Below, piece after piece: positions 47,032 to 49,393 of a DNA stretch of 64,000 nucleotides. The stretch covers positions 1-64,000 of the forward strand of contig DXHU01000023.1 in NCBI GenBank assembly GCA_019113245.1, given 5' to 3'. Each line of letters begins with the position of its first letter. The stretch's first letter is position 1. The DNA is from Candidatus Ornithospirochaeta avicola. Lineage in GTDB: Bacteria; Spirochaetota; Spirochaetia; Sphaerochaetales; Sphaerochaetaceae. The notes under the pieces are model-generated. The model had not been told where the DNA came from. It ran no database searches and saw only the letters and a program-made list of their open reading frames with translations. Position numbers and translations under genes: made by a program.

Positions 47032-47982
47032 ATGGATAAAAACATTATTCTGACAAAAAAGGCGGTTGTCTTCTTTCTTGCAATGCTCTGCTGCTTTTTA
47101 TGGGGAAGCGCAACTCCGGCAATCAAGACTGGCTATGAGCTTTTCAGGATAGACAGCACGGACAGCCTTTCGATAATTCTCTTTGCAGGAATAAGATTCT
47201 TTCTTGCAGGAATACTGGTGATACTTTTCCAGTCTATTATGGACAGGAAATTTCTGAAAATGGAAAAGAAAGCGCTCCCATCTGTTTTAAAGCTTTCTCT
47301 TGCTCAGACAATACTGCAGTATTTCTGCTATTACATAGGACTGGCACATGTAAGCGGAGTAACAGGAACGATACTATCAGGAACCAGCGGATTTTTCTCT
47401 ATTATAATAGTCTGCCTGATAATCAGGACCGAAAAGCTGACTGCAAACAAGATAATAGGATGCATTATGGGGCTGCTTGGAATAATAATAATGAACATCA
47501 CGCTCACAGAAAGACTTTCTTTCCATTTTGCACTCAATGGAGAGTTCCTTGTTCTCATGTCGACAATATGTCTTGCTGTTTCAGGAATCCTCATCAAGAA
47601 ATATTCAGAGAATTTCAATGTCGTGATGCTCTCAGGATACCAGTTTGCAATCGGCGGACTCATAATGATAATAATCTCAATCCTGCTGGGAGGAAGAATT
47701 TATTTTGACTTCAGCCTAAAAGCCATTTTCCTGATGCTATATCTGGCTATGATTTCTGCTGTTGCCTATACAATCTGGGGAATACTGATGAAGTACAATC
47801 CGGTAAGCAGTGTGTCGATATTTGTTTTCATGACACCTATTTTCGGTGTAATTCTCTCAGCAATTTTCCTAAATGAAATCAAGCAGGCCCTTATGCTCAA
47901 CAAGATAATTGCGCTTGTTCTTGTCACTCTTGGAATATATATCATGAACTACCCCCGCTTAAGAAGCGGCGGTTTCGGATAA
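47032..47982 (+). CDS. EamA/DMT-family transporter with C-terminus replaced by element sequence
   Basis: A 316-residue ten-helix permease of the drug/metabolite transporter superfamily. Two EamA repeats are recognisable (FFLAMLCCFLWGSATPAIKTGY near residue 13-34, and a second repeat from about residue 160 with LMSTICLAVSGILIKKY). The substrate is unknown. The last residues (PRLRSGGFG) are encoded by the end of the inserted TnpB element. The likely original end, reading GLLVNRKEEAKVQKK and a stop, survives at 49346-49393 beyond the element. The helices are complete, so the protein may still work. Confidence 0.88.
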   Translation: MDKNIILTKKAVVFFLAMLCCFLWGSATPAIKTGYELFRIDSTDSLSIILFAGIRFFLAGILVILFQSIMDRKFLKMEKKALPSVLKLSLAQTILQYFCYYIGLAHVSGVTGTILSGTSGFFSIIIVCLIIRTEKLTANKIIGCIMGLLGIIIMNITLTERLSFHFALNGEFLVLMSTICLAVSGILIKKYSENFNVVMLSGYQFAIGGLIMIIISILLGGRIYFDFSLKAIFLMLYLAMISAVAYTIWGILMKYNPVSSVSIFVFMTPIFGVILSAIFLNEIKQALMLNKIIALVLVTLGIYIMNYPRLRSGGFG

Positions 47983-49263
47983 TCTTCGCTTCATCAGGCG
48001 ATCTTGTCCTTTGCGATAGCGCTCCAGCACTCCGCCGAGGATAGAGGAATCACCCTCCACGCAGGGCTCGTCCAGCCACTGGGCCCTTATAGCCGAGCCA
48101 AGCTTTTTTATCGTTTCCGCAGCATGGACATCCCTGTCGCCTTCCTCGCTTTCGCAATAGGCACAATAGAATTCTCTCTGGAAACGCCCGATGCTGTTCA
48201 CCTCGCCGCATGTGCAGCAGAGCTTCGTCGTCGGAAACCCGCGCTGTATGCAGAATGCGCGTTTCCCGTTCGTTCCGCTGAATATGCCCATCAGAAGCGC
48301 CTTCACCGCCCCGACGAACGAATGCTGCACGCGGCCTGAATAGGAAGGGGATGCGTGCCATGAGGCTATCATCTCGTCCTGGAAGTATACGGTATCGTAT
48401 CTCTCCATCAGATCCACGATGACCTTCTTCGCCGCATCCTTCTTCCGGTTGTATGCCTTCTCGCGTTCCACCCTAATCTGCATGAGGCATCGCTTATATC
48501 GGGTCGAGCCTTTCTTCTTCCTTGAGAGCTTCCGCTCCAGGAATCTGAGACGCTCCGTTTCCTCCTCGTAATAAGCGAACACCTCGCCATCTGACGTGGT
48601 TATCTTCGAAGGCCCGAAATCGAGCCCGACGGCCTTCCCCGTCTTCGCTCTCTTCGGCATATCGTCCTTATCTATGCAGACCGTAATCGCCACGTAATAG
48701 CCGGAAGGCTTCCTTATGAGCTTGCCGTCCGCAAACTCACATGAATCCCCGTACCGCTTAAGCTGTCCGAGGCCGTATACCCTGAGCTTCGGAAAGCCCG
48801 GAATGGATATCATCTCGGAGCCTTTTATCTTAACGAACCCGGTCTTGATGTCTATGGAATCGACGCTCTTCACGAAATGGAGCTTTCCGACCTCGATGCC
48901 CTTGGCCTTCGCCTTTGCGAGGTTGGATATATCGCGGAAAACCGCATCCACAACGCCTCTATGATAGACGGACGGCATGGTGATATCATCGGTTATCGCG
49001 TTCTTGTCCTTATCGTAATGGACGACCTTCTTATGCTCGTCGTACTTATATGAATGCGCGTCGTCGAGTGCGACGATACTGTTGCGGACCCATTTCGCTT
49101 CGGCGAATATCCTGCCGAGGCGGTCGGAATCAGAGGCGGAAAGCGTTGACTTGTTTACCTTCAGGAGCACGACGCGCTTCTCCTGATGCATCCGCTTCTC
49201 GCGGGTGGCTTTCAGGCTGGCGCTTATCCTGTTTCTGGTGGCTTCCGAACGCTTCGATTCCAT
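47959..49263 (-). CDS. tnpB: TnpB RNA-guided nuclease (OrfB, IS605 family)
   Basis: A 434-residue relative of Cas12. The split RuvC nuclease is intact: Asp215 in VGLDFGPSK, Glu297 in YFQDEMIAS and the third acidic motif EGDRDVHAAE (Asp376/378). The usual Asn of DxNAA is His here. Two Cys pairs (CCTC about 349-352, CAYC about 367-370) form the zinc finger. The first 24 residues (SEATRNRISASLKATREKR) are an extra basic segment resembling a NUMOD3-type DNA-binding motif. A later ATG at 49191 could be the real start. TGC-TATAAT lies six bases before ATG 49263. High GC and foreign codon use mark recent transfer. Confidence 0.93.
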   Translation of the reverse strand: MESKRSEATRNRISASLKATREKRMHQEKRVVLLKVNKSTLSASDSDRLGRIFAEAKWVRNSIVALDDAHSYKYDEHKKVVHYDKDKNAITDDITMPSVYHRGVVDAVFRDISNLAKAKAKGIEVGKLHFVKSVDSIDIKTGFVKIKGSEMISIPGFPKLRVYGLGQLKRYGDSCEFADGKLIRKPSGYYVAITVCIDKDDMPKRAKTGKAVGLDFGPSKITTSDGEVFAYYEEETERLRFLERKLSRKKKGSTRYKRCLMQIRVEREKAYNRKKDAAKKVIVDLMERYDTVYFQDEMIASWHASPSYSGRVQHSFVGAVKALLMGIFSGTNGKRAFCIQRGFPTTKLCCTCGEVNSIGRFQREFYCAYCESEEGDRDVHAAETIKKLGSAIRAQWLDEPCVEGDSSILGGVLERYRKGQDRLMKRRLSETAAS

Positions 49264-49269
49264 ATGATG

Positions 49270-49278
49270 ATTATAGCA
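49270..49278 (-). promoter_or_regulatory. Extended -10 inside the TnpB element
   Basis: Minus-strand TGC-TATAAT with TTCCAT 17 bases upstream. The six-base gap puts +1 at the tnpB ATG 49263. Confidence 0.55.
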
Positions 49279-49345
49279 GATAACAGAAGATGATGGAATT
49301 GGTATCCGCTAACTCCCGCTTAAGAAGCCGGGAGCTTGCGCGGAT

Positions 49346-49393
49346 GGATTATTGGTCAACAGAAAAGAAGAAGCCAAAGTACAAAAGAAATGA
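49346..49393 (+). pseudogene. Displaced original 3' end of the DMT transporter gene
   Basis: Reading from GGA at 49346 gives GLLVNRKEEAKVQKK and then TGA (49391-49393). This is a hydrophilic Lys/Glu-rich tail typical of DMT transporters, in the frame that would continue MNY at 47944-47952 if the element were removed. It is now cut off and untranslated. The base composition matches the host, not the element. Confidence 0.65.

What the first reader, a model, noticed from the sequence alone, without database searches (positions are those of the whole stretch)
47953..49393. TnpB element inserted in a transporter; original C-terminus recoverable on the far side
The DMT transporter reads into the element end, finishing PRLRSGGFG. 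Directly beyond the element, codons at 49346-49390 read GLLVNRKEEAKVQKK then stop, in the frame that continues the MNY just before the left end. This reveals the ancestral end and fixes the element near 47953-49345. The element is GC-rich, carries only tnpB, and both ends share GCTTCTTAAGCGGG, which can form hairpins as in IS200/IS605 ends. The transporter keeps all its membrane helices, so the element may be near-neutral here.
Basis: partly seen in the sequence, partly recalled or inferred. Interest (0 to 1): 0.6.

Follow-up and report, generated by a model that had tools for sequence, protein, structure and literature searches.

The report
RNA-guided jumping gene inside a transporter
A small mobile DNA element carrying only an RNA-guided nuclease gene (tnpB) has inserted into the last codons of a membrane transporter gene in an uncultured spirochaete, and the uninterrupted version in a sister species fixes its exact ends; it is an ordinary kind of element with an unusually clear before-and-after picture.

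Summary
Sister genome G020 carries the uninterrupted site (...GGAATATATATC|GTCAACAGAAAAG...). The element is therefore 47944-49354 (1411 bp, no target duplication), not 47953-49345. VNR or VNK stands at this place in all 27 orthologues. One 12-residue tail was replaced by another (MNYPRLRSGGFG).

It is a tnpB-only IS200/IS605-type element: hairpins at both ends, TTGAC at the left end, right end closing GTAGTTCAT, tnpB stop codon inside the right-end hairpin. Copies in G009, G014 and G003 share both ends at other loci. A second uninterrupted site, for the G009 copy, follows the same rule. TTGAC plus the predicted guide matches exactly only the sister's empty site.

No Y1 transposase was found in this 97%-complete genome, although most genus relatives have one. 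The protein folds like TnpB, but the canonical catalytic Glu is Gln, with an acidic residue two positions on, as in all 25 related TnpBs checked. Nuclease activity, guide RNA and movement in trans are inferred. New member of a known kind; modest interest.

The parts
47944..49354 (-). whole element, 1411 bp, tnpB-only IS200/IS605-type; no target-site duplication
   Evidence: uninterrupted site in sister genome G020; conservation of related copies stops exactly at position 1411
47959..49263 (-). tnpB, 434 aa, RuvC D215, Q295-D296-E297, D378, zinc-finger cysteines C349/C352/C367/C370
   Evidence: Pfam OrfB_IS605 above cut-off; closest solved structures ISFba1 and ISDra2 TnpB; motif alignment
47944..47976 (-). 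right end (RE): hairpin CCGCTTCTTAAGCGG holding the tnpB stop codon TAA, then GGGTAGTTCAT
   Evidence: sequence; DNA fold z = -3.7; same end in G009, G014, G020, G003 and similar ends in more distant elements
49304..49354 (-). left end (LE): CAATAATCCATCCGCGCAAG then hairpin CTCCCGGCTTCTTAAGCGGGAG with outer stem ATCCGC/GCGGAT
   Evidence: sequence; DNA fold z = -3.7; conserved in four other copies
49355..49359 (-). target/TAM pentanucleotide TTGAC abutting the left end
   Evidence: TTGAC before the LE in the window, G009 and G014, TTGAT in G003; TTGAC present in the uninterrupted sites of two insertions
47928..47943 (-). predicted guide segment (GATATATATTCCAAGA) just outside the right end, antisense to the transporter
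   Evidence: position by analogy with ISDra2 reRNA (PMC8612924); TTGAC plus its first 12 nt matches exactly only the sister's empty site
47944..48132 (-). inferred omega RNA scaffold (3' end of tnpB plus RE)
   Evidence: reduced synonymous change at codons 378-406 in two of three pairs; solo 188-nt remnant of this stretch in G035 and 98-nt retention in G003
49270..49275 (-). TATAAT six bases before the tnpB ATG (predicted leaderless mRNA)
   Evidence: conserved in all four close copies
47032..47982 (+). EamA/DMT transporter as it reads now; residues after GIYI (47944-47979) are element-encoded
   Evidence: ORF, Pfam EamA, comparison with orthologues
49355..49393 (+). stranded ancestral 3' end of the transporter: VNRKEEAKVQKK and stop
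   Evidence: in frame with GIYI once 47944-49354 is left out; identical apart from the last residue in G020

Best explanation
47944-49354 is a tnpB-only (IS1341-like) member of the IS200/IS605 kind that was acquired horizontally and inserted 3' of a TTGAC on the minus strand, inside the VNR codons of an EamA transporter, without duplicating the target (shown by the uninterrupted sister site). A Y1 transposase supplied in trans most likely moved it by single-strand peel-and-paste (inferred: TTGAY site, end hairpins, no duplication, Y1 genes in relatives but none found in this genome). The tnpB transcript most likely yields an omega RNA from its 3' end and RE, whose guide is the transporter sequence just outside the RE. 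The TnpB-RNA complex would then cut the restored empty site (TTGAC-GATATATATTCC), so that repair from an occupied copy keeps the element in place (inferred from ISDra2).
For: Uninterrupted site in the sister genome with collinear flanks at 92.6-93.5% identity on both sides. Copies in G009, G014 and G003 at other loci keep both ends and TTGAC or TTGAT at the left; the G020 copy keeps the right end. A second uninterrupted site, for the G009 copy, seen in three orthologues, again shows TTGAC at the join with no gap there. Horizontal transfer: the element is 93% nt (94% aa) identical to that of G009, whose transporter is only 70% aa identical, while the sister species' element copy is more divergent, dS 0.44 against 0.27. 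tnpB dN/dS is about 0.1 among copies. TnpB fold: best hits ISFba1 TnpB E = 7e-16 and ISDra2 TnpB E = 1e-14. TTGAC plus guide has one exact target in the two genomes, the sister's empty site. ISDra2 precedent for TTGAT, reRNA from the RE and donor-joint cutting: PMC8612924; TnpA acting when expressed in trans: PMC2806898.
Against: No Y1 transposase was detected in this genome, so present mobility is unshown; the assembly is 97% complete in 23 contigs, so one could be missing. The canonical RuvC-II Glu is Gln, so nuclease activity is not assured. The omega RNA structure is not established: the 189-nt fold has z of only -1.6, and the synonymous-constraint signal is not significant in the closest pair, p = 0.15. 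The G020 copy has no TTGAY at its left end.
Confidence: 0.9

Rival explanations
1. One reading: the element is 47953-49345 and the transporter once ended MNY-GLLVNRKEEAKVQKK.
For: The frame is open across both joins.
Against: The sister's uninterrupted gene reads GIYI-VNRKEEAKVQKI with no extra codons, and all 27 orthologues put VNR or VNK directly after the GIYx-type motif. The right-end conservation of other copies runs nine bases further out, to GTAGTTCAT.
Confidence: 0.01
2. A fossil: the same element, but now immobile and inactive because no transposase remains and the nuclease has lost its catalytic Glu.
For: No PF01797 match in the genome; Gln at the canonical Glu position; decayed relatives in G003, G020 and G035.
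Against: The reading frame is intact with dN/dS about 0.1 between copies. Q-D-E/D is shared by all 25 related TnpBs examined, including those of other phyla and a phage, so it is not a private loss. The ends are intact.
Confidence: 0.25
3. A domesticated TnpB-like RNA-guided repressor (TldR-like) controlling the transporter.
For: The predicted guide is antisense to the transporter; the catalytic Glu is altered.
Against: D215 and D378 are kept. Copies sit at unrelated loci with transposon ends. The TTGAC-guide target at this locus is split by the insertion itself.
Confidence: 0.03
4. An IS607-type element moved by a serine recombinase.
For: TnpB also occurs in IS607; NCBIfam IS607_TnpB is the second-best model.
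Against: Subterminal hairpins, a TTGAY site at the LE in four of five copies, best model IS200_TnpB, and genus elements with Y1 tnpA and the same GGTAGTTCA right end. A serine recombinase was not searched for.
Confidence: 0.03

Closest known systems
ISDra2 (Deinococcus radiodurans), IS200/IS605 family
   Same: Insertion 3' of TTGAT (here TTGAC) with no target duplication, subterminal hairpins, TnpB fold, tnpB 3' end reaching into the RE
   Different: No tnpA in the element; canonical Glu (E278 in ISDra2) is Gln with Glu two residues on; TnpB only weakly similar in sequence
ISFba1 TnpB (PDB 8iaz)
   Same: Best structural match of the predicted TnpB model
   Different: 16% identity; canonical Glu present (IEDLN) in ISFba1
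tnpA/tnpB elements of the same spirochaete genus (G020 contig 14, G003 contig 35, G017 contig 7)
   Same: RE ending GGTAGTTCA after a hairpin (seen for G003 and G017), Q-D-E motif, conserved DRDVHAA
   Different: tnpB 37-40% identical; a divergent Y1 tnpA next to tnpB
Bifidobacterium longum plasmid tnpA/tnpB element (NZ_CP084013.1)
   Same: Q-D-E motif; right side ...GGTAGTTCAT
   Different: 33% identity; carries its own tnpA

Membership tests
IS200/IS605 family element | insertion 3' of a short fixed sequence without target duplication | tested here: met
   two uninterrupted sites, both TTGAC, no duplication
IS200/IS605 family element | subterminal hairpins at both ends | tested here: met
   ssDNA folds, z = -3.7 each
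IS200/IS605 family element | Y1 HUH transposase TnpA (may be absent in tnpB-only members) | tested here: not met
   none in the element or the genome; present in most genus relatives. PMC8612924 notes members carrying an isolated tnpB, so this does not exclude membership
IS200/IS605 family element | transposition as a single-stranded circle | not testable with these tools
   needs experiment
TnpB | TnpB fold and OrfB_IS605/zinc-finger domains | tested here: met
   NCBIfam TnpB models match but below their curated cut-offs
TnpB | RuvC Asp I and Asp III | tested here: met
   D215 and D378 align with ISDra2 D191 and D361 and are invariant in 21 sequences
TnpB | canonical RuvC-II Glu (ISDra2 E278) | tested here: not met
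   Gln295 at that place; Glu at 297
TnpB | omega RNA from tnpB 3' end and RE | tested here: inconclusive
   synonymous constraint and solo remnants suggest it; fold alone weak; no Rfam match
TnpB | RNA-guided TAM-dependent cleavage | not testable with these tools
   needs experiment
TldR (nuclease-dead regulator) | loss of RuvC catalytic residues and of transposon ends | tested here: not met
   Asp I, Asp III and both ends retained

The most novel reading that the evidence does not exclude
This TnpB belongs to a broad branch in which the RuvC-II glutamate has moved two residues along the chain (Q-D-E/D instead of E-D-L), giving a working nuclease with a rearranged active site unlike the Fanzor-type rearrangement, and whose tnpB is transcribed as a leaderless mRNA.
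Probability: 0.3. Interest if true: 0.45.

Novelty: new member of a known kind. Interest (0 to 1): 0.3.

Why it matters
It gives an exact before-and-after pair for a tnpB-only element in an uncultured spirochaete lineage, with a perfect predicted guide target surviving in a sister species. That makes the retention idea (TnpB cuts the emptied site) testable with natural sequences. It also shows how such an element can swap a protein's tail for an element-encoded one of the same length.

Tried and rejected
Relatives of the tnpB in viral contigs, plasmids and phages: only distant ones (at most 41% identity), so no recent vector was found. Rfam scan of the locus: only the tRNA reached its cut-off. 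Folding the 189-nt RNA alone: not clearly more stable than shuffles, z = -1.6. A guide-like sequence preceded by TCCAT on contig 4 was looked at and is not an element end. The paper on TnpB active-site rearrangements (Altae-Tran 2023) is not held, so whether Q-D-E is already described could not be checked. Paper searches for leaderless tnpB and for IS605 in Spirochaetales gave nothing relevant. A covariance model of the guide RNA was not built; the close copies vary too little and the distant ones align poorly.

Full report
What was checked. The window lies in a 1.5-Mb genome of 23 contigs. Its closest named relatives carrying the same element are uncultured Spirochaetales metagenome bins. The finding concerns an EamA/DMT transporter at 47032-47982 that reads into an element carrying tnpB on the other strand.

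The uninterrupted site. Sister genome G020 (97% identical transporter; flanking DNA collinear at 92.6-93.5% identity on both sides) has no element at this place. Its gene reads GGA ATA TAT ATC GTC AAC AGA AAA GAA, that is GIYI-VNRKEEAKVQKI. Comparison with the window puts the element at exactly 47944-49354, 1411 bp, with no target duplication and no ambiguity at either end. The three codons it read as the end of the transporter (MNY) and the three it read as the start of the recovered tail (GLL) are element DNA. In all 27 orthologues (55-97% identity) VNR or VNK follows directly after the last helix and none carries the insertion; two distant homologues (L030, L031, about 35%) end differently. 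No transporter examined, other than the window's, ends in PRLRSGGFG. The old 12-residue tail was replaced by a 12-residue tail, so the protein keeps its length of 316 aa.

Ends and target. In tnpB orientation the left side reads ...TGTTGAC|CAATAATCCATCCGCGC... and the right side ...CCGCTTCTTAAGCGGGGGTAGTTCAT|GATATATATTCC.... Both ends form hairpins as single-stranded DNA with z = -3.7. The tnpB stop codon is inside the right hairpin. Related copies sit at other loci: G009 (93% nt identity), G014 (84%), G020 (89-91%, interrupted), G003 (internally deleted) and a 188-nt 3' remnant in G035. Conservation ends at exactly the same base on the right in all of them. The left side is preceded by TTGAC in G009 and G014 and by TTGAT in G003; the G020 copy lacks it. 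For the G009 copy the joined flanks align, with no gap at the join, with three orthologous ATPase-like genes, each with TTGAC at that point. Two independent insertions therefore follow the same rule.

Origin. The element's divergence does not follow the host's. It is 93% nt identical to the copy in G009, whose transporter is only 70% identical in protein, while the sister species' element copy is more divergent. Together with GC of 53.8% against 42.3% for the window this indicates horizontal acquisition. No Y1 transposase was found in this genome, while 20 of 23 same-genus genomes searched have a match, 26 of 40 relatives overall. In the same genus, more distant elements carry tnpB beside a divergent Y1 tnpA and end in GGTAGTTCA. 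Movement by a transposase acting in trans is the likeliest route; it is inferred, not shown.

The nuclease. The predicted structure (mean pLDDT 80) matches ISFba1 TnpB (E = 7e-16) and ISDra2 TnpB (E = 1e-14) best. Asp I and Asp III are present and invariant in 21 aligned TnpBs. The canonical RuvC-II Glu is Gln295, followed by Asp296 and Glu297; Q-D and then an acidic residue are shared by all 25 related TnpBs examined, including Bifidobacterium, Thermovirga and Thermus-phage homologues. It is not the Fanzor-type rearrangement, where the Glu lies just before the zinc finger (PMC10711439); the residue at that place here is Gly342. Active-site rearrangements in several TnpB branches have been described (Altae-Tran et al. 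2023, from memory; not held).

Guide RNA. Codons 378-406 of tnpB show fewer synonymous changes than the rest in the two wider comparisons (26 of 28 and 27 of 27 codons identical; Fisher p = 0.001 and 5e-5) but not significantly in the closest pair (p = 0.15). That stretch was picked after viewing the profile, and the two wider comparisons share a sequence, so the p-values are optimistic. The G035 remnant begins at the same place, and G003 keeps the last 98 nt at 87% identity while its 5' part has diverged to 68%. Together these suggest an RNA function, on top of the end function, for the last 190 nt or so. The fold by itself is not convincing (z = -1.6). By analogy with ISDra2 (PMC8612924) the guide would be GATATATATTCCAAGA. 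TTGAC plus its first 12 nt has one exact match in this and the sister genome: the sister's empty site. This fits the published retention model, though it follows automatically from where the element sits.

Effect on the host gene. All membrane helices are kept and only the tail is exchanged. Transporter dN/dS against the sister is about 0.06, but this may reflect mostly the time before the insertion. Near-neutrality is plausible and untested.

Verdict. A well-delimited, tnpB-only IS200/IS605-type insertion: known kind, new member, with corrected boundaries.

Noticed in passing
49270-49275 and the 22 tnpB loci: TATAAT (or a 5/6 match) ends 5-6 bases before the tnpB ATG in 16 of 22 related tnpB genes, against 3 of 59 window ORFs of 180 codons or more (one of the three appears to be this tnpB itself), predicting leaderless tnpB mRNAs across the lineage. 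The spacer range was chosen after seeing the close copies.
   Followed up: partly
L062:1579-5033 (G020 contig 2): The sister species' tnpB copy is interrupted by a 3.4-kb element with three consecutive tyrosine-recombinase-like genes and inverted ends, resembling a recombinase-in-trio (RIT) element.
   Followed up: partly
47962-49263, residues 295-297: Canonical RuvC-II Glu replaced by Gln with an acidic residue two positions later (Q-D-E/D), shared by all 25 related TnpBs examined.
   Followed up: partly
L065:1999-2548 and L066:2222-2394: Internally deleted and 3'-only remnants of the element in G003 and G035, keeping mainly the right-end region.
   Followed up: partly
G000 contigs 10, 13 and 21: Four further, more distant tnpB genes (about 33-35% identity, one a fragment) in a genome with no detectable Y1 transposase; two lie at contig ends.
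   Followed up: partly
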